A stretch of DNA of 33,965 nucleotides from a virus. Location of the stretch: positions 1-33,965 of the IMG/VR virus record IMGVR_UViG_3300020183_000265; one strand, 5' to 3'. Every line of letters begins with the position of its first letter. Positions within the stretch are counted from its first letter, which is position 1. A program made the translations under genes and the position numbers. The notes under the pieces are model-generated. The model was not told the origin of the DNA. It made no database searches and worked only from the letters and a program-made list of their open reading frames with translations. Positions 21,646 to 31,072 of the stretch are shown piece by piece.

Positions 21646-23934
21646 ATGTCATTTATATCAATAACACCAGACCTGATTGAGAATGTAACTCTTGCTTTGC
21701 ATCCTAAGAGAACGTTTGTCTCATCTTCGTCTGGTGTATCTGGTTCTATAAGATTAATCAATAGGCCTAGTGCCTTTATCAAAAAATTAAATCCGACCTC
21801 TTCTGTTTTCGCTGAAGGGACTTTGGACTCAATTAATAATTACCTATTGGCTGCATCACAAAAAATCAACAGGGGTTCAACAGATGTATCTGGCGATCTT
21901 GAAGCTTATTTAAGTTTTGTCAACAGCCAGGCACAAACAGGCCTTAATAACATCCAATTTTCACCAATTAGGTATGAACAACCTGTCAATTTCACAGATG
22001 ACAATGGTAGCCCATTTCTCTTAAAGACGGCAATTAAAGACGTCATGATGCCTTATTACAGGCATGCATATTCAATTTGTGATTTCTCATGTGGAAATTA
22101 CCATTCTCTAAACTTTTTCTCATCTAGTATGGGTAGCAATGATACTACTCTGATATACGCAAATGTTAGTAGTTCGTATGGGAAACAATACACCCCTACG
22201 GGCCCTTTTAGCATTGACTTTTTCATTAATCCAAGACGACTTGCAAAGTCTGGGTCTGATTATTCTCCTGGTACTATTCTCCACCTTAGCTCAACGTTTG
22301 CGGTTTCTCTCATCACCGGATCTAGCAAGGATAGTAATCAAAATACTGATAAGTTTAGAATACTTTTGCAACTTAGCCAAAGTGCCGATGTAAGTCCTGA
22401 TACACTTTCAATACCTAGTGTTGAAACAGGTCTTACATTTCCTAAAAATCTGATTTTTGTATCTGATGATAATACGCTAAGCTATAACACGTGGCACCAT
22501 GTAACAATTAGATGGGGCGGATCATCTAGGAGCGATGGTGAAGGCAGCATCGTCATAGATGATGTTCAAAAAAGCTTTAATATTCCATCAAGTTCAATCT
22601 CGACTCTGTTAAATTCAGACGCACTATTTGTAGGAAACTTTTATCAAGGTAGTGACTTAGTAACGAAGTTTTTCAACAGTACTATAGCCACGTCTGAAGG
22701 TGTTCCAGAATTTTCTGGTTATACAGCTGACCCGACAGGGTACACACTTGACAATCAGCTACAAGCTGAGGTTCATGATTTGAAAATTTACAGTCGTTAT
22801 CTGAGCGACAATGATATCAAACTTAATACCACACGCTCAAACTATAACGATGAGGATTTGTTATTTTACGTACCTCCAATGTTTAGCACAATTACACCTT
22901 CTAGAGGCGTTCTCGTAACACCCTTCCAGACTAAAAGTAAGACAACTTATAGCCCTTACAATGTCGATATGTCATTTGGAGTCAATGGATTCTACATGAA
23001 TTTAGAAAACTTTGTCAAGGAGTATGTAACAGGAAATATACCACGCCTGCTTAACCTAACAGCGTCAGTTAATACAGGCACAGTCATAAATCAGACTGCT
23101 GATGATCTCCTATATGCGAACACACAAGTTGCAAAAAGAAATCTATTAATTTTACCTAACGATAATGGAATCTTAAAGCAAGATTTTTCAATAATTTCTG
23201 AAGAATCATCAGACTTTTTTACTGATGATCTGGATTGCACTGATCATTCTATTATATCAATGAGTAGAATGTTGACAGGATCATTTTTTCCAGGCCTCTC
23301 GGGAGATTTTGATGCTATCGGAGGTGCGACTCCAGAAAGACCAGATACTGAGTTAGCATCTGGTCTTACACTTGCTCAAAGATTCAAGGATACAAGCTCA
23401 AACCGTGTTGTCCTCTTTGACATTTCTAATCTAGGTTATGGAAAAAACATACAGCCAGGAACGTTTAGGATAATTGATAACGACATGAGTGGATCTGCCG
23501 GAGCAGTGAAGATCACTTTGCAAGATGATGGTCATGGTTCAATTTACCGTTCAGATTCTTTAACACGTCATAGCAAATGGTCGTCTGTCGGTAACATATT
23601 TTACAACGAAGGTGTCGTAATTCTTACATCGCCTGCACTTTCACTTTTTGCCAAAGACCAAATGACATTATCATTCAAGGGTGAGCAAAGAACTCCTGTA
23701 ATGGTCTTGAATATACCCTGTCCTGCTGGCCTCATTAATTCGTCTTCTAATCCGACATATGAGCCTTTCCCAGTGACGCAATTTGTCAATGAAAGAGAAG
23801 ATAGGTTTGTCTATATCACAGGCATAAATTTACATGATGAGAATCTCAACGTTATAATGCGAGCAAACCTTGCGCAACCAATCGCAAAGAGAGACTCTGA
23901 TGAGTTTATGTTTAGAATCAAATTCGACTTCTAG
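21646..23934 (+). CDS. Virion protein with LamG-like domain and shared C-terminal module
   Basis: 762 residues. A LamG/concanavalin A-like jelly roll spans about residues 186-395: GPFSIDFFINPRRL at its start, NTWHHVTIRWGGSSRSDGEG with the characteristic W-H-H strand, SIVIDDVQKSF, ALFVGNF, and EVHDLKIYSRYLSDNDI at its end. Just before it is PYYRHAYSICDFSCGNYHSL, a stretch I associate with phage structural proteins of this type. The C-terminal 40 residues match those of the 423-residue protein upstream. LamG folds often bind carbohydrates, so a role in touching the host surface is plausible. The ATG at 21646 has no clear Shine-Dalgarno site. The end of the gene overlaps the RuvC-like gene by 35 bases. 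Confidence 0.75.
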   Translation: MSFISITPDLIENVTLALHPKRTFVSSSSGVSGSIRLINRPSAFIKKLNPTSSVFAEGTLDSINNYLLAASQKINRGSTDVSGDLEAYLSFVNSQAQTGLNNIQFSPIRYEQPVNFTDDNGSPFLLKTAIKDVMMPYYRHAYSICDFSCGNYHSLNFFSSSMGSNDTTLIYANVSSSYGKQYTPTGPFSIDFFINPRRLAKSGSDYSPGTILHLSSTFAVSLITGSSKDSNQNTDKFRILLQLSQSADVSPDTLSIPSVETGLTFPKNLIFVSDDNTLSYNTWHHVTIRWGGSSRSDGEGSIVIDDVQKSFNIPSSSISTLLNSDALFVGNFYQGSDLVTKFFNSTIATSEGVPEFSGYTADPTGYTLDNQLQAEVHDLKIYSRYLSDNDIKLNTTRSNYNDEDLLFYVPPMFSTITPSRGVLVTPFQTKSKTTYSPYNVDMSFGVNGFYMNLENFVKEYVTGNIPRLLNLTASVNTGTVINQTADDLLYANTQVAKRNLLILPNDNGILKQDFSIISEESSDFFTDDLDCTDHSIISMSRMLTGSFFPGLSGDFDAIGGATPERPDTELASGLTLAQRFKDTSSNRVVLFDISNLGYGKNIQPGTFRIIDNDMSGSAGAVKITLQDDGHGSIYRSDSLTRHSKWSSVGNIFYNEGVVILTSPALSLFAKDQMTLSFKGEQRTPVMVLNIPCPAGLINSSSNPTYEPFPVTQFVNEREDRFVYITGINLHDENLNVIMRANLAQPIAKRDSDEFMFRIKFDF
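23812..23931 (+). other. Shared C-terminal module, copy 2
   Basis: Codons for the last 40 residues of the 762-residue protein, ending FRIKFDF. It is the partner of copy 1 at 21512-21631; the shared positions are T3, I5, L7, A18, L20, P23, K26, D28, F34, R35, D39 and F40 of the module. Its last 32 coding bases, together with the following stop, also encode the start of the RuvC-like protein in another frame. Confidence 0.75.
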
Positions 23935-24478
23935 GTTCTTGGGGCTTGATATATCTACATCATGCACGGGAATCTGTATACTGAATCAAGATAAAGAGTT
24001 AGTCGTGCTTGACAACATCAGACTAGATAAATGCGCAGATTTCTTTCAGAAATGTGTTGAAGTTAAAAAACATCTTGAAGATTTGAAAAAGGATCATCTG
24101 ATACAGTATATCTTTATAGAACAAGATCTTCAAGCATTCAGGCCAGGTCTTTCATCAGCAGCAACAATCAATACACTTGCTAGGTTTAATGGGGCAATTA
24201 CTTTTATTGTGTATCAGACTTTCAATGTAAGACCTGACTTGATTAATGTCACTAAGGCACGTTCAGCAATAGGCTTAAAAATAGATCATAAAGATAAAAC
24301 ACGTTCAACTAAGCAGAAGGTCTTTGATTGGGTAAGACCCCAGATTGAGTTTGATTGGCCATTGAAAAAGACAGGTGATTATAAAGCGTCCTGTTTTGAC
24401 ATGTCAGACGCTTATGTGATATGTCGCGCTGGAATTGAATTACTTCAACAGGGTAAATTGAATGAAGACGAAGTATGA
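23900..24478 (+). CDS. RuvC-like Holliday junction resolvase
   Basis: 192 residues from the ATG at 23900, chosen because GAGAG lies 6 bases upstream; an upstream in-frame TTG at 23870 is less likely. RNase H-fold nuclease of the RuvC type: first acidic residue D17 in FLGLDISTSCTGICIL, the second E74 in YIFIEQ, and the C-terminal pair D167 and D170 in FDMSDAYVI. These would bind two metal ions and cut four-way junctions before packaging, the job done in T4 by the unrelated gp49 endonuclease VII. The gene overlaps the tail gene before it by 35 bases in another frame. The primase GTG follows 6 bases after its stop. A related non-resolvase RNase H-fold nuclease cannot be excluded. Confidence 0.8.
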   Translation: MSLCLESNSTSRFLGLDISTSCTGICILNQDKELVVLDNIRLDKCADFFQKCVEVKKHLEDLKKDHLIQYIFIEQDLQAFRPGLSSAATINTLARFNGAITFIVYQTFNVRPDLINVTKARSAIGLKIDHKDKTRSTKQKVFDWVRPQIEFDWPLKKTGDYKASCFDMSDAYVICRAGIELLQQGKLNEDEV

Positions 24479-24484
24479 TTAAAA

Positions 24485-25447
24485 GTGATTGCAACTTATA
24501 CAGAGCGTCTTCAGTTCATCCAGGCAAACTTTGGTAAAGGCCTTATTTCAAGAGATGGTAACGATGTCACTGTGTCTTGTCCATTTTGCAAAGATTCTTC
24601 TAAAAAGAAACTTGCAATAAGTCTAGAAACTTGGAAATATCATTGCTGGGTTTGTAGTGCAAGAGGTAATACGCTAGTCTCAGCACTCAAAAAGTTCAAA
24701 TCTAGAGACATTGTTGATTACTATCGCGTACACTTTTTAAACTCTTCTCTTCTAAGTGCAGACATAGAAGACGTTGAAGATAAAATTGAGTTACCCGAAG
24801 GTTATACACCTCTTGCCACCGTTGGCAAAACTAATCATCCAGATGTTAGAGCAGCTACTCGTTACCTTGAACGTCGCGGTATAACAGAACGAGAAATCTG
24901 GAAATTTAGAATAGGAATAACGACAGATGGTAAATTTACAAGACGTGTAATATTCCCTTCACTTGACTATTCAGGTGACTTGAACTACTTTTTAGGTAGA
25001 AGTATTGATCCAAAATCCAAATTCAGGTATATGAATGCCTCGACAGATAAGTCAAGTATCATATTCAATGATGTCGAGATTGACTGGGATAAGCCGCTCT
25101 ATCTCGTCGAAGGGATTTTTGATCATATTGCGCTTGCAGAGAATGGTACATGTCTGCTTGGATCGACATTAACAACAAACTCTCTACTTTTTAGGAAGAT
25201 TGTTGCTAACGAGACAGATGTTGTACTTTGCCTTGACAGCGACATGACTCAAAAAATTGGTAAAATCTCTGATTTATTGACATCGTATGGCTGCAATGTT
25301 AAAATCATGGATACATCATCAGCTAAAGATATAGCTGAGATGACACCTGAGCAACTCGACTATGCAAAAGCATCTATCGAAGACTGGAATATGAGGTCTT
25401 CTTTTAGATATAAAATCTCAAATATCAAAAGTGGCTCACTTTTGTGA
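24485..25447 (+). CDS. 61: DNA primase, zinc-finger plus TOPRIM (gp61/DnaG-like)
   Basis: 320 residues. An N-terminal zinc-binding module has C32 and C35 (CPFC), then H53, C54 and C57 (HCWVC), as in DnaG and T4 gp61 primases, which use it to recognise the priming site. The TOPRIM catalytic core shows E209 in YLVEGIFDHIAL and D251 and D253 in VVLCLDSDM. It would lay down RNA primers for lagging-strand synthesis with a replicative helicase that is not in this window. The start is GTG, the third codon after the in-frame TGA of the RuvC-like gene, with only a weak upstream GAAG. Length is close to T4 gp61 (about 340). No helicase domain is fused. Confidence 0.85.
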   Translation: MIATYTERLQFIQANFGKGLISRDGNDVTVSCPFCKDSSKKKLAISLETWKYHCWVCSARGNTLVSALKKFKSRDIVDYYRVHFLNSSLLSADIEDVEDKIELPEGYTPLATVGKTNHPDVRAATRYLERRGITEREIWKFRIGITTDGKFTRRVIFPSLDYSGDLNYFLGRSIDPKSKFRYMNASTDKSSIIFNDVEIDWDKPLYLVEGIFDHIALAENGTCLLGSTLTTNSLLFRKIVANETDVVLCLDSDMTQKIGKISDLLTSYGCNVKIMDTSSAKDIAEMTPEQLDYAKASIEDWNMRSSFRYKISNIKSGSLL

Positions 25448-25754: not shown

Positions 25755-28700
25755 ATGAAGATTGCACACTTCGCTGATGTTCATTTTAGAGGCCTTGCTC
25801 GTCACACAGAATATAGAAGCTCTTTCTCTGACGCATTTGAGAAGCTTCGCAAGCTGAAGCCTGATGTCATCTACATCGGTGGAGACATAGTTCATTCAAA
25901 GACACAAGGCATCACACCTGAGCTGATTGAGATTCTCACGTGGTGGTTTAACGGTCTAGCTGACATCGCACCTGTCGATGTGATTCTAGGCAATCACGAC
26001 GGCCTCCTCCTCAACAAGGACAGACAAGACGCGATCACGCCTGTCATTTCAGCATTGAACAATCCTAGAATTCGTCTTTTTAAGAATTCAGGAGTTTATG
26101 ATGCGCCCATTGAGGGTTTTAAGTGGTGCGTCTTTTCACCTTTTGATGAAGAGGGTTGGAAAGATGTGAAGCCTGCAAGTGATGCCATCAATATTGCATT
26201 TTATCATGGTGCAGTTAGAGGATCAAAATCAGATAGTGATTATGACATCCAAGGTGAAGTGACTCTTGAGATGTTTGAAAGGTTTGACTTTTCTCTCCTC
26301 GGTGACATTCATCGTCGACAATTCATAAATGACGCGGAGACAGTCGCCTATTGTGGCTCGACAATCCAGCAGAATTATGGCGAAGATGTCGACAAGGGCT
26401 TCTTGTTTTGGGACATCAAGAGCAAGAACAAGTTTACGACAAAATTCGTGCCTGTCAAGAATGACTATCCTTTCCTAAACATTGACTGGGCCGGAGACGT
26501 CGCATCAACTATTACTAGACTCTCAAGATGTCCTGAGACAGCGAGAATTCGATTTAATCTACCTGCAGAAGCTTCTGACGTCGACGCAAGAAGCCTGCAT
26601 GACATGGCACTTAAACTTAAGAACTTCTCTGAAGTTGTCTTCAAGATTGACGCTAAGACCGAAAAGAAAGACGAGGTCATCATCACAGGCCTCAAGAGTT
26701 CTAATCTACGTGATAGAGATTCCATTAAAGGCGTCATTGAGGCTTATCTCAAAGAGAAGCAGGTTGATGATAAAAAGATCGCTCGCTCTCTCAAGGAGTT
26801 TGACAAGTACTTTGATGCCGTGACATTTGATGACGAGGTCGCCAGAAATGTCCTGTGGAGCCTAAAGAATATCGAGTTTGATAATGTCTTTGCTTACGGC
26901 AAGGACAATGTTATCAATTTTGAAAATCTGCAGGGCATCACAGGTATCTTTGGAAAGAATCGTGCTGGAAAATCTTCGATCATTGGCACGATTGTCTACA
27001 ACCTGTTCAACACGTCTGATCGAGGTGCAATGAAAAATTTGCACATCATAAACGCAGATGAAGAGTCGTGCAAGAGCCGTATAAACCTCGCTGTTGCCGG
27101 TGAAGATTATGAGATCACCAGAGAGTCCTTGAAGAACTACCCTAAGAAGGGTGAAGTTTGGGCCAACACTGTCTTGTCGCTCAAGAAGAAGAGTACAGGA
27201 GATGTGATACAGGATCTAAATGATGAGCAGCGTCGTGAGACCGAGAAGATCGTTAGAAAATTGATCGGAACGTCAGATGACTTCTTCTACACATGCCTTG
27301 CGCCACAGGGCCAGATGAACATGTTCATCAACGAGAAGTCCACCAGTAGAAAGCAAATTCTTAGTCGGTTCCTAGACCTTGACATATTTGACAAGTACCT
27401 CGAGTGTGTCAAACAAGATCTCAGCCCGCTAAAAGCATCAATAAAGATGACATCAAGTCTTGACGCGTTGAAACAGACACAAGCGCTGCTTATATCTGAG
27501 AAGACGCAACTTGAAGAAAAGTCTGATGAGGTGAAGAGTGAGATCGAATCCAAGCGAATTAAGCTTGCCAAGATGTCTTCATCTGATTCTGATAATATCG
27601 TCTCCGACACTGACATTGACAATCTAGAATCAAAGATTGAAAAGATTCGTAAGGAGATTGAAGGCCTCGAAGAGACGATTAGAAGTCATCAAGAGTCTAT
27701 CAAGACATATGATGAAAAGATCGAGAAGATCAAAGATGTGAGAGACGCATTTAGCATTGACCAGCTCCAAAAAGAGCACGACGCGATCACAGACCAAGAG
27801 ATGAAATATGCTATCAACGTCAAAGAGCTAGAAGCAAAAGACAAGGAGCTCGATAAGATAAGAAGAGACATCGAAGTCTTAAATTCAGTTCCTTGCGGAG
27901 ATAAGTTTCCAACTTGCGTCTTCATTAAAGACGCGCATAATAGCAAGAAAATTCTTGAGATTGAAGAGAACACAAGAGCGCTTGTGCAGAGAACGCTTGA
28001 CGTCCTTAAGGAAAAACTTTCTGAGACAAGCAGAGAAGACATCAAGGCAAAAATTGACAAGATTAATAAGCTTGTAACTCTTGAAAAGGACCTGGAAAAC
28101 AAGAAGATCTATGCTTCTTCACAGATCACTATTCTTAGTGAGCGTCTAGTCAACAAGCAGGCTATCAAACAGCAGCTAGACACGCAGCGTCTAGAACTTA
28201 AGAAAAAGTTAAAAGATCAAAATGAGAAAGGCCTGAGTGAGACACACCAGCAGTGCCTTGACCTAAGAGAGAGCATAAGTCGACTTGAGAACAATGCATT
28301 CTCAATTGCTTCATCACTAGGCAGAGTAACAGAAAAGATTTCTAATAATGAGCAGCAGATGTCAACGCTTAAGGACAATATCGAGCGCTTTGAAATTTTG
28401 ACCTTGCTTGAGAATTCTTTCTCCAAAAAAGGAATACCCCAGAATATTATTGCTAAAAATCTACCTCTTCTGAATAGTGAGATCGCCAAGATTCTAAGTG
28501 GAATCGCAGGATTTACCGTTGAGATTGAGTGCGATGATTCAAATTCAATTGAAATTTACATAAACTATGGTGATAGAAAGAGAATAATTGAGCTAGGTTC
28601 AGGTATGGAAAAGATGATCTCTTCAATTGCAATTAGAGTTGCGCTCACCAGCATTTCATCTCTACCTAAGTCTGACATGCTCATTATTGATGAAGGTTTC

Positions 28701-28871
28701 GGAGTGCTCGATGAAAGTAATCTTGAGTCTTGCGCGCGGCTCCTTCAAAACCTTAAGAGCTACTTCAGGAAGATAGTGATCATTTCTCACGTCGATGCAA
28801 TTAAAGACATCGTCGACAATGTCCTGTGTATAGACATGGTCGGGGGTAAGGCGAGAGTCAAACATGTCTGA
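25755..28871 (+). CDS. Fused Mre11-Rad50 (gp47-gp46) recombination nuclease/ATPase
   Basis: 1038 residues that join two normally separate proteins. Residues 1-365 are an SbcD/Mre11/gp47 nuclease with all metal motifs: D8 and H10 (FADVH), D44 and H47 (GGDIVH), GNHD at 79-82, H151 (FYHG) and H186 (GDIH). Residues from about 366 are an SbcC/Rad50/gp46 ATPase: KNIEFDNVFAYG, Walker A GKNRAGKSS at 400-408, Q-loop Q518 (APQGQ), a coiled coil at about 565-880 with a hook C714-C721, signature ELGSGMEKM, Walker B MLIIDE ending at 980, LDE 985-987 and H1012 (ISHVD). It would resect DNA ends for recombination-dependent replication. No in-frame ATG lies at the join near 26847. No Shine-Dalgarno site is seen before the start. 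Its visible codon choice is more GC-rich than in the tail genes. Confidence 0.92.
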   Translation: MKIAHFADVHFRGLARHTEYRSSFSDAFEKLRKLKPDVIYIGGDIVHSKTQGITPELIEILTWWFNGLADIAPVDVILGNHDGLLLNKDRQDAITPVISALNNPRIRLFKNSGVYDAPIEGFKWCVFSPFDEEGWKDVKPASDAINIAFYHGAVRGSKSDSDYDIQGEVTLEMFERFDFSLLGDIHRRQFINDAETVAYCGSTIQQNYGEDVDKGFLFWDIKSKNKFTTKFVPVKNDYPFLNIDWAGDVASTITRLSRCPETARIRFNLPAEASDVDARSLHDMALKLKNFSEVVFKIDAKTEKKDEVIITGLKSSNLRDRDSIKGVIEAYLKEKQVDDKKIARSLKEFDKYFDAVTFDDEVARNVLWSLKNIEFDNVFAYGKDNVINFENLQGITGIFGKNRAGKSSIIGTIVYNLFNTSDRGAMKNLHIINADEESCKSRINLAVAGEDYEITRESLKNYPKKGEVWANTVLSLKKKSTGDVIQDLNDEQRRETEKIVRKLIGTSDDFFYTCLAPQGQMNMFINEKSTSRKQILSRFLDLDIFDKYLECVKQDLSPLKASIKMTSSLDALKQTQALLISEKTQLEEKSDEVKSEIESKRIKLAKMSSSDSDNIVSDTDIDNLESKIEKIRKEIEGLEETIRSHQESIKTYDEKIEKIKDVRDAFSIDQLQKEHDAITDQEMKYAINVKELEAKDKELDKIRRDIEVLNSVPCGDKFPTCVFIKDAHNSKKILEIEENTRALVQRTLDVLKEKLSETSREDIKAKIDKINKLVTLEKDLENKKIYASSQITILSERLVNKQAIKQQLDTQRLELKKKLKDQNEKGLSETHQQCLDLRESISRLENNAFSIASSLGRVTEKISNNEQQMSTLKDNIERFEILTLLENSFSKKGIPQNIIAKNLPLLNSEIAKILSGIAGFTVEIECDDSNSIEIYINYGDRKRIIELGSGMEKMISSIAIRVALTSISSLPKSDMLIIDEGFGVLDESNLESCARLLQNLKSYFRKIVIISHVDAIKDIVDNVLCIDMVGGKARVKHV

Positions 28872-29473: not shown

Positions 29474-31072
29474 ATGGAAACGACTAATAAGTCACGGCAG
29501 GTAAGTGAAATTGTTAGGTGCGGTAGAGATCCTGCGTATTTTTTTAACAACTACGTAAAGATCCAACACCCGACAAAGGGAACAATACCTTTCAAGACTT
29601 TTCCCTTCCAGGACCAGTGTATCAAAGAGTTCATAGACAATAGATTCACAATTGTTGTTAAAGGACGCCAGCTCGGACTTTCAACTCTTGTCGCTGCTTA
29701 CGCTGTTTGGCTCGCACTTTTCCAGAAAGATAAGAACATTCTGATCATTGCAACAAAGTTGCAGGTCGCTCAAAACTTCATCAAAAAGTCAAAGACCATC
29801 ATCAACAATTTGCCTGCATGGCTTGTGCTCCCGACAGTCACAGCAAATAACAAGCAATTGGTCGAATTCAGCCATGGTTCAACAATCAAAGCCATACCGA
29901 CTTCTGAGGATGCGGGTCGTTCTGAGGCACTGTCTCTTCTCATTGTTGATGAGGCGGCATTTGTTAGAGACTTTGATACTCTTTGGACTGGTCTTTATCC
30001 TACGCTGACGACCGGCGGCCGGGCCATTCTATTGTCAACTCCCAACGGTGTAGGCGGGCAATATTACAAACTGTACAAAGATGCTGAGGCTGGTATTAAT
30101 GAGTTCAAGCCTGTCAAGCTTAATTGGGACGTTCACCCCGAGCGAGATCAAGCCTGGTTCGACAAGGAGACCAGAAATCTTACAATTCGTCAAATCGCGC
30201 AGGAGTATCTGTGCGATTTTGCCTCGTCAGGTGAGACATTTTTAGGTGATGACGATTTAAAGTGGCTGCATACCCAAATTCAGGCTCCTGTCATCCGCGA
30301 GGGATTTGATCGAAATGTCTGGGTTTGGAAGCAGCCTCTCGCAGAACACAAATATGTGATATCTGCAGACGTAGCTCGAGGTGACGGAAAGGACTACTCT
30401 GCATTTCACGTGTTTGATCTCATGACAGGTGAAATTGTCGTCGAGTACAAGGGGAAAATTGCACCTGATAGGTTCGGTGACTTACTCAATGATTACGGGC
30501 TAAAATACAACAAAGCCTTAATGTGTCCTGAAAACAATAGTTTTGGTTATGCAACGATTATTAGGCTGCGTGACCTAAATTATCCTAAGATGTACTATCA
30601 AAAGAGCCAAGCTGTGTACATTGGTGATTATGTCTCGCCAGGAGACACAACAACTGCAGGATTCAGTACGTCAGGAAAGACTCGCTCTTTGATCCTGACT
30701 AAGCTTGAAGAGCTTATAAGAAACAAACAGATTATATCTTACTCATCTAGGTTTTATGATGAGCTTAAGACTTTCGTGTGGAATGACAACAGAGTTCAAG
30801 CAATGAAAGGTGAGAATGATGACCTTGTCATGAGCATGGCGATCGGAGTTTGGTTATATGACGCTTCTGCTGAACATGGTAAGGACACAACGATCCTGAA
30901 CCAGGCAATGTTATTAGGGATGGCAATTAAGTCAAATACTTTCAATGGTGCAGCAAACGACATCATGTCAGGTGAGAGTCGTCGCAGAGTTGAAAGTCGA
31001 CGAGATCTCATCAACACGCGTAACATAAATAGATATAACATTCCACCTGAACTCATGTGGATCTACAAGTAG
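29474..31072 (+). CDS. 17: Large terminase, packaging ATPase/nuclease (gp17)
   Basis: 532 residues, close to T4 gp17 (about 610). The ATPase domain has an adenine-side FPFQDQCIKEFI, a Walker A-type loop VVKGRQLGLST (residues 61-71), Walker B LLIVDE (155-160) and a coupling motif LLSTPNG. The nuclease domain shows D299, D304 and D307 in ISADVARGDGKDYSAF, E353 in CPENNSFG, and D449/D450 in ENDDLVMS, matching the metal-binding acids of the RNase H-like terminase nuclease. It would dock on the portal and cut and pump the DNA concatemer. The usual Lys after the second Gly of T4 Walker A (RQLGKTT) is Leu here, with a Lys at the start of the loop. No intein or intron interrupts it. The ATG lacks a Shine-Dalgarno site. 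Confidence 0.93.
   Translation: METTNKSRQVSEIVRCGRDPAYFFNNYVKIQHPTKGTIPFKTFPFQDQCIKEFIDNRFTIVVKGRQLGLSTLVAAYAVWLALFQKDKNILIIATKLQVAQNFIKKSKTIINNLPAWLVLPTVTANNKQLVEFSHGSTIKAIPTSEDAGRSEALSLLIVDEAAFVRDFDTLWTGLYPTLTTGGRAILLSTPNGVGGQYYKLYKDAEAGINEFKPVKLNWDVHPERDQAWFDKETRNLTIRQIAQEYLCDFASSGETFLGDDDLKWLHTQIQAPVIREGFDRNVWVWKQPLAEHKYVISADVARGDGKDYSAFHVFDLMTGEIVVEYKGKIAPDRFGDLLNDYGLKYNKALMCPENNSFGYATIIRLRDLNYPKMYYQKSQAVYIGDYVSPGDTTTAGFSTSGKTRSLILTKLEELIRNKQIISYSSRFYDELKTFVWNDNRVQAMKGENDDLVMSMAIGVWLYDASAEHGKDTTILNQAMLLGMAIKSNTFNGAANDIMSGESRRRVESRRDLINTRNINRYNIPPELMWIYK
31024..31031 (+). promoter_or_regulatory. Possible late promoter ahead of the portal gene
   Basis: CATAAATA fits NATAAATA and lies in the 3' end of the terminase gene, 46 bases before the portal ATG at 31078, a distance that would leave a normal leader with its AGGA. 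It is within coding sequence, so chance remains possible. Confidence 0.3.

What the first reader, a model, noticed from the sequence alone, without database searches (positions are those of the whole stretch)
25755..28871. Mre11-type nuclease and Rad50-type ATPase fused in one polypeptide
In T4 and in bacteria the nuclease (gp47/SbcD) and ATPase (gp46/SbcC) are separate genes, usually adjacent. Here one 1038-residue frame holds every nuclease motif (D8/H10, D44, GNHD 79-82, H151, H186) followed by every ATPase motif (Walker A 400-408, Q518, Walker B, D-loop, H1012). The start-like gp46 sequence NIEFDNVFAYG follows the nuclease directly, with no in-frame ATG at the join. A fixed 1:1 covalent complex would change how the M2R2 assembly forms and is regulated.
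Basis: partly seen in the sequence, partly recalled or inferred. Interest (0 to 1): 0.7.

Follow-up and report, generated by a model that had tools for sequence, protein, structure and literature searches.

The report
Ordinary Mre11-Rad50 fusion in phages
A phage gene joins the two halves of a DNA-break-processing enzyme into one protein; the join is real, but this kind of fused protein has been known since 2011 and is the fixed, ordinary form in this whole group of phages (some relatives have since been cut in two again at a different place).

Summary
Window 25755-28871 is one uninterrupted 1038-aa frame with a complete Mre11/SbcD-type nuclease followed by a complete Rad50/SbcC-type ATPase. 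It is not an assembly error: two other assemblies are base-identical across the join. Of 140 distinct related loci that carry both flanking domains, 139 have them in one reading frame; the exception has a nonsense codon elsewhere. The type is also published: 'Mre11/Rad50 fusion proteins', Yoshida et al. 2011 (PMC3175470), who suggested that many aquatic metagenome homologues of Mimivirus R555 belong to phages. The window protein carries both R555 active-site substitutions (GDxxH; GDIH in place of GHxH). Its best viral fold matches are giant-virus fused repair proteins. The model shows a helix-loop-helix domain, a 9-residue linker, then Rad50. The hook is a conserved CX6C, not CXXC. Most likely job: DNA-end processing for recombination and replication, encoded between RuvC-like/primase genes and the terminase. 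Relatives held something more unusual: 30 of 144 are split again inside the nuclease domain, with conserved acidic/basic tails and a decaying homing-endonuclease cassette.

The parts
25755..28871 (+). Fused Mre11/Rad50-type protein (1038 aa), R555-like MRfp
25755..26369 (+). Mre11-type phosphodiesterase domain, residues 1-205; ligands D8, H10, D44, N80, H151, D184, H186 (GDxxH and GDIH variants)
26394..26651 (+). Mre11 capping domain, residues 214-299
   Evidence: structure model; fold match to SbcD nuclease plus capping domain 7dog
26715..26825 (+). Helix-loop-helix (predicted Rad50-binding) domain, helices 321-334 and 339-357
   Evidence: HLH role from PMC3175470
26826..26852 (+). Linker, residues 358-366 (9 residues); the surrounding stretch 340-372 is 33 residues long in 123 of 139 loci
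26853..27449 (+). Rad50 ATPase N-lobe and first coiled-coil turns, residues 367-565 (Walker A 400-408, Q-loop Q518)
27894..27917 (+). Hook at the apex of the coiled coil: C714-x6-C721
   Evidence: C714 in 62 of 65 and C721 in 65 of 65 sequences; apex position in model
28515..28868 (+). Rad50 ATPase C-lobe, residues 921-1038 (SGMEK signature 949-953, Walker B/D-loop 976-986, H1012)
23870..24478 (+). Neighbour: RuvC-like protein (named from sequence pattern only)
   Evidence: homologue upstream in 96 of 119 loci
24485..25447 (+). Neighbour: DnaG-type primase-like protein with N-terminal zinc ribbon (named from sequence pattern only)
   Evidence: homologue upstream in 113 of 119 loci
29474..31072 (+). 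Neighbour: terminase large subunit-like protein (named from sequence pattern only)
   Evidence: homologue downstream in 50 of 54 loci

Best explanation
This is a phage-encoded Mre11/Rad50 fusion protein of the Mimivirus-R555 type. Shown: one polypeptide holds a phosphodiesterase domain, capping domain, helix-loop-helix domain, 9-residue linker and Rad50 ATPase with a short coiled coil (about 165 residues per arm) and a CX6C hook; this layout is fixed in its phage group and sits between recombination/primase genes and the packaging terminase. Inferred: it works like T4 gp46/gp47 and SbcCD. The two Rad50 heads close on ATP, the tethered Mre11 domains dimerise beside them, and the assembly processes DNA ends to give 3' single strands for recombination-dependent replication, and perhaps degrades host DNA. 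The fusion mainly guarantees 1:1 synthesis and co-transfer of two proteins that act together anyway.
For: Domain hits; one ORF in 139 of 140 relatives; identical DNA across the join in three assemblies; metal and ATPase motif positions conserved in relatives, including both R555-type substitutions; AlphaFold model with HLH 321-357 and linker 358-366; fold matches to Mre11-Rad50 and SbcCD structures and, at full length, to giant-virus fused repair proteins and Tenacibaculum phage fusions; conserved neighbourhood of RuvC-like, primase-like and terminase-like genes; published precedent and its 9-12-residue linker estimate.
Against: I found no biochemistry for any R555-type fusion. The His-to-Asp change at motif V alters a metal ligand, so activity or metal preference could differ. 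Overall pTM is 0.47, so the placement of the nuclease relative to the ATPase is not reliable. The window is a 34-kb fragment, so separate gp46/gp47 copies elsewhere in the genome cannot be excluded.
Confidence: 0.88

Rival explanations
1. The fusion is an assembly or sequencing artefact: a missed stop or frameshift joins two neighbouring genes.
For: Such artefacts exist: the Listeria phage LMTA-57 'fusion' is one base shorter than sister records that are otherwise 100% identical and annotated there as two genes.
Against: L002 and L003 are base-identical to the window across the join, and relatives at 82%, 60%, 45% and 30% identity keep the frame open. 139 of 140 loci are one ORF, and the 340-372 segment is 33 residues long in 123 of 139.
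Confidence: 0.01
2. Besides the fusion, a stand-alone Rad50 (or cleaved halves) is made, by internal initiation near codon 356 (GTG) or by proteolysis, so the stoichiometry is not fixed.
For: An in-frame GTG lies at 26820, 11 codons before the first Rad50 strand, with AAGGAG 21 nt upstream.
Against: The GTG is GTT or GTA in the 82% and 74% identical relatives. Only 6 candidate starts in 139 loci have an SD-like match. No conserved cleavage site was sought.
Confidence: 0.05
3. The nuclease half is a modified or structural module: the GHxH-to-GDIH and GDxxD-to-GDxxH changes alter the metal site so that it no longer cuts like Mre11, and the protein mainly bridges DNA ends.
For: Both substitutions are fixed in 64 of 65 sequences and were reported in Mimivirus R555.
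Against: All other ligands are invariant or nearly so, and Asp and His are both common metal ligands in phosphoesterases (general knowledge), so a working site is more likely.
Confidence: 0.08

Closest known systems
Mre11/Rad50 fusion proteins (MRfp), Mimivirus R555 group (Yoshida, Claverie & Ogata 2011, PMC3175470)
   Same: Order nuclease then ATPase in one ORF; HLH region plus short linker; GDxxH and Asp-for-His active-site substitutions as reported for R555; phage primase genes on the same contigs, as that paper found for metagenomic R555 homologues.
   Different: Shorter (1038 aa against 1351 aa) with a shorter coiled coil; encoded by a tailed phage between primase-like and terminase-like genes. 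R555 itself was not aligned here.
T4 gp47/gp46 and bacterial SbcD/SbcC
   Same: Same domains and motif order; same place in replication/recombination biology (inferred).
   Different: Separate genes; T4 keeps GDIFD and GHFH, and a CPTC hook.
Microcystis phage Mel-JY01 'AAA domain containing protein' (WWT39521.1)
   Same: Full-length fusion in one CDS next to a primase-like gene, 30% identity over 100% of the query.
   Different: Lacks the first hook cysteine in the alignment.
Genes in pieces made by homing endonucleases (Aeh1 nrdA/mobE, T4 gene 60/mobA; review PMC2988022)
   Same: Model for the split relatives: a protein cut in two by a homing endonuclease gene and presumably reassembled non-covalently.
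   Different: Concerns relatives, not the window gene; here the pieces carry conserved acidic and basic tails, and most copies have lost the endonuclease.

Membership tests
Mre11/Rad50 fusion protein (MRfp, R555 type) | Mre11/SbcD domain N-terminal and Rad50/SbcC domain C-terminal in one ORF | tested here: met
Mre11/Rad50 fusion protein (MRfp, R555 type) | Capping and HLH region retained, followed by a linker of about 9-12 residues | tested here: met
   HLH helices 321-334 and 339-357, linker 358-366; criterion
Mre11/Rad50 fusion protein (MRfp, R555 type) | R555-specific substitutions: GDxxH, and Asp for the first His of GHxH | tested here: met
   H47 and D184, each in 64 of 65 sequences; R555 description
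Mre11/Rad50 fusion protein (MRfp, R555 type) | Clusters with R555 in a sequence tree | not tested
   R555 sequence not fetched; only structural similarity to giant-virus fused proteins was seen
Mre11/SbcD nuclease | Seven metal-ligand positions occupied | tested here: met
   D8, H10, D44, N80, H151, H186 as usual; first His of motif V is Asp184
Mre11/SbcD nuclease | Mn-dependent nuclease activity | not testable with these tools
   needs purified protein
Rad50/SbcC ATPase | Walker A, Q-loop, signature, Walker B, D-loop and H-loop around a coiled coil | tested here: met
   GKNRAGKSS 400-408, Q518, SGMEK 949-953, LIIDEGFGVLD 976-986, H1012
Rad50/SbcC ATPase | CXXC zinc hook | tested here: not met
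   CX6C at 714-721, C714 in 62 of 65 and C721 in all; T4 gp46 has CPTC. A variant hook at the same apex position; so it works like a Rad50 but is not a canonical one in this feature
T4 gp46/gp47 pair | Nuclease and ATPase on separate genes | tested here: not met

The most novel reading that the evidence does not exclude
In this phage family the fused Mre11/Rad50 protein has been re-partitioned. A homing-endonuclease cassette, carrying its own pair of complementary protein tails (acidic strand on piece 1, basic strand on piece 2), has repeatedly cut the nuclease domain just after the GDIH motif. The endonuclease then decayed, leaving an enzyme made of an Mre11 catalytic core plus an 'Mre11 cap-Rad50' fusion held together non-covalently by a long beta-hairpin: a splicing-free counterpart of the split-intein 'fractured gene'. 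This concerns relatives, not the window copy.
Probability: 0.65. Interest if true: 0.5.

Novelty: new member of a known kind. Interest (0 to 1): 0.3.

Why it matters
The fusion itself matters modestly: it gives a large, well-sampled phage source for the R555-like genes that Yoshida et al. saw in aquatic viral metagenomes, with complete genes and a fixed neighbourhood. It also offers a compact single-chain MR enzyme with an unusual CX6C hook and an altered metal site. The more testable point came from the relatives: natural versions of the same enzyme exist fused, and fused but cut inside the nuclease domain, so whether tethering or splitting affects MR activity can be compared within one protein family.

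Tried and rejected
Assembly artefact: rejected by base-identical assemblies and by relatives. Conserved internal start for a separate Rad50: rejected. Listeria phage LMTA-57 as a second independent fusion: rejected as a probable one-base error in that record. My first split/fused counts from tblastn pieces misclassified same-frame splits as fused, because alignments ran across stop codons; they were redone with domain profiles on stop-to-stop ORFs, and the tree with them. Group I intron in L081/L083: no Rfam hit, and too little sequence lies outside the endonuclease ORF. Intein: the pieces are out of frame or stop-separated, and the tails are too short. Programmed frameshifting at the split: the relative frame varies among 0, 1 and 2. 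A viral scan with the L083 first piece found no relatives. The plasmid search gave only partial, distant hits. The genome scan gave 13 contigs, mostly metagenome bins, the full-length ones at 29-43% identity, probably binned phage.

Full report
CHECK OF THE OBSERVATION. Window 25755-28871 (+) is one open frame of 1038 codons with an ATG start and no internal stop. Pfam places Metallophos at 1-186, AAA_23 at 373-640 and SbcC_Walker_B at 943-998; PHROG_77, the SbcC-like family, matches 355-1035. An AlphaFold2 model built on 27 family members (mean pLDDT 81.5, pTM 0.47) shows in order a phosphodiesterase domain, a capping domain (strands and helices 214-299), two helices at 321-334 and 339-357, a 9-residue gap 358-366, the Rad50 N-lobe from strand 367, an antiparallel coiled coil of about 165 residues per arm, an apex at 712-724 and the C-lobe. 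The low pTM means that the relative placement of nuclease and ATPase is not reliable. Foldseek matches Mre11-Rad50 and SbcCD chains in the PDB.

IS IT AN ARTEFACT? No. L002 and L003, from two other metagenome assemblies, are base-identical to the window over 301 nt spanning the join, and the 82% and 74% identical relatives L004 and L005 keep the frame with substitutions only. Profiles of four segments (nuclease core, cap/HLH, ATPase N, ATPase C) were searched against all stop-to-stop ORFs of all loci fetched by then, and loci with the same protein were counted once. Of 140 distinct loci with both cap/HLH and ATPase-N segments, 139 have them in the same ORF. The exception, L136, has a single nonsense codon around residue 277, inside the cap, not at the join. 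The aligned segment 340-372 is 33 residues long in 123 of 139 loci and 31-34 in all. A true artefact looks different: the Listeria phage LMTA-57 'fusion' is one base shorter than sister records that are otherwise 100% identical and are annotated there as two genes.

Is there a second product? The only standard alternative start near the join is GTG at V356 (26820), with AAGGAG 21 nt upstream; in the closest relatives that codon is GTT or GTA. Only 6 candidate starts in 139 loci have an SD-like sequence nearby. I consider a separately made Rad50 unlikely.

WHAT IT IS. It is also a published type. Yoshida, Claverie and Ogata (2011, PMC3175470) described 'Mre11/Rad50 fusion proteins' in Mimivirus (R555), bacteria, plasmids, eukaryotes and a Bacillus phage. 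They showed that R555 homologues are abundant in aquatic viral metagenomes, often on scaffolds with phage genes such as primases, and suggested that some of these come from phages. They also estimated that 9-12 linker residues would bridge the about 28 A between the Mre11 C-terminus and the Rad50 N-terminus. The window protein fits closely. Its linker is 9 residues in the model. Its metal motifs show the two substitutions reported for R555: His in GDxxH (H47) and Asp for the first His of GHxH (D184, GDIH); each is present in 64 of 65 aligned sequences, whereas T4 gp47 has GDIFD and GHFH. Its best full-length viral fold matches are Tupanvirus, Harvfovirus, Yasminevirus and other giant-virus repair proteins, then Tenacibaculum phage fusions. 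A primase-like gene lies upstream in 113 of 119 loci with enough flank, a RuvC-like gene in 96 of 119, and a terminase-like gene downstream in 50 of 54. The neighbour gene names rest on sequence patterns in the translations; I did not run family searches on them. The isolate Microcystis phage Mel-JY01 carries a 30%-identical full-length fusion.

One feature departs from the textbook family: the apex motif is CX6C (C714, C721), with C714 in 62 and C721 in all 65 aligned sequences, in place of the CXXC zinc hook found in T4 gp46 (CPTC). Whether it binds zinc is untested.

HOW IT MOST LIKELY WORKS. Shown: domain content, conservation, gene order. From the known family: T4 gp46/gp47 contribute to resecting DNA ends for recombination-dependent replication (described in PMC3175470). 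Inferred: the fusion dimerises through its Rad50 heads and Mre11 domains into the usual assembly, with the HLH packed on the coiled-coil root, and does the same job. Covalent linkage fixes synthesis at 1:1 and lets both halves move together between genomes.

WHAT TURNED UP IN RELATIVES. Of 144 distinct loci with both the nuclease core and cap segments, 114 have them in one ORF and 30 do not. All 30 break at the same place, just after the GDIH motif. Piece 1 (about 215-235 aa in most, with all metal ligands) ends in a tail such as GDIHKMQFLAGRDVELEIDESELAKYPEAEVIA; piece 2 (about 860 aa, the rest of Mre11 plus Rad50) starts with a basic strand such as LSKRIKIRVKRPWVAYPGS. Net tail charge is negative in all 30, and the heads are basic in most; start and stop codons overlap by 4 nt (ATGA, GTGA, TTGA) in about a third of cases. 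L081 and L083 carry a roughly 300-aa zinc-finger nuclease ORF between the pieces: L081's has weak Vsr matches and clear phage homing-endonuclease matches, L083's matches a TnsA-like nuclease. DNA alignment shows a decay series: L081 whole endonuclease, L112 both ends only, L123 and L114 only the last tens of bases. Between L081 and L112, L123 or L114 the tail and head DNA is 89-100% identical while the flanks are 57-77% identical, so the cassette has probably moved horizontally. On the tree, 18 split sequences form one clade (support 0.96) and the others are scattered among fused ones: 9 changes, against a minimum of 21 in 300 label shuffles. Tail codon differences are synonymous 47% of the time, against about 20% expected for random single changes, so the tails look to be under purifying selection (pairs of related sequences are not independent). 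A model of L171 with the stop read as glycine, purely as a tether, has tail strand 187-200 and head strand 221-234 in the arrangement of a long hairpin (mean pLDDT 81.5); strand pairing was inferred from the strand positions, not measured, and the tether itself favours it. Homing endonucleases that cut phage enzymes into functional pieces are known (Aeh1 nrdA, T4 gene 60; PMC2988022). I found no report of this for Mre11/Rad50 in the open library, which is incomplete. The window copy is not split.

VERDICT. Real, well conserved, and a new member of a published kind; interest 0.3. The re-split relatives deserve their own examination.

Noticed in passing
L081:4983-9155, L083:2944-7169, and L112, L113, L114, L115, L123, L134, L143, L152, L163, L166-L168, L170-L174, L177, L182, L183, L190, L191, L195, L198, L201-L203, L210: The fused gene is cut again inside the nuclease domain right after the GDIH motif (30 of 144 distinct loci), with a conserved acidic tail on piece 1 and a usually basic head on piece 2, and stop/start overlaps in many. 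Tails look to be under purifying selection.
   Followed up: yes
L081:5668-6588, L112:5675-5810, L123:5645-5716, L114:2493-2533: Decay series of a homing-endonuclease-like ORF between the two pieces: whole, internally deleted, remnant. Flanking tail/head DNA is far more similar than the rest of the gene, pointing to horizontal spread.
   Followed up: yes
L083:3665-4582: In the 484-kb uncultured phage LR756508 an insertion at the same site carries a different nuclease (TnsA-like domain) but similar charged tails on the broken protein, perhaps independently.
   Followed up: partly
window 27894-27917 (residues 714-721): Rad50 apex motif is CX6C in almost all members instead of CXXC; whether it still binds zinc is unknown.
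   Followed up: partly
L086:2917-5943 (KJ591605.1, Listeria phage LMTA-57): The annotated 1009-aa 'recombination exonuclease' is probably a one-base error joining two genes; sister records have one more base and two genes. Its predicted structure sits in BFVD as a fused protein.
   Followed up: yes
L085:2992-6051 (Enterococcus phage phi EF14H1): Separate nuclease and ATPase genes lie in the same reading frame with only a stop and about 37 codons between them, a possible precursor or product of fusion.
   Followed up: no
L011, L023, L043, L052, L071 (downstream of the fusion gene): The portal-like match lies about 1.3-1.6 kb further from the terminase match than in other loci, suggesting an insertion in or after the terminase gene, or a partial portal match.
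   Followed up: no
L259-L268 (genome contigs): Full-length or partial relatives in metagenome bins named Halobacteriovorax, Methylococcaceae, Flavobacteriales and others, probably binned phage contigs; hosts of this phage group remain unknown.
   Followed up: no
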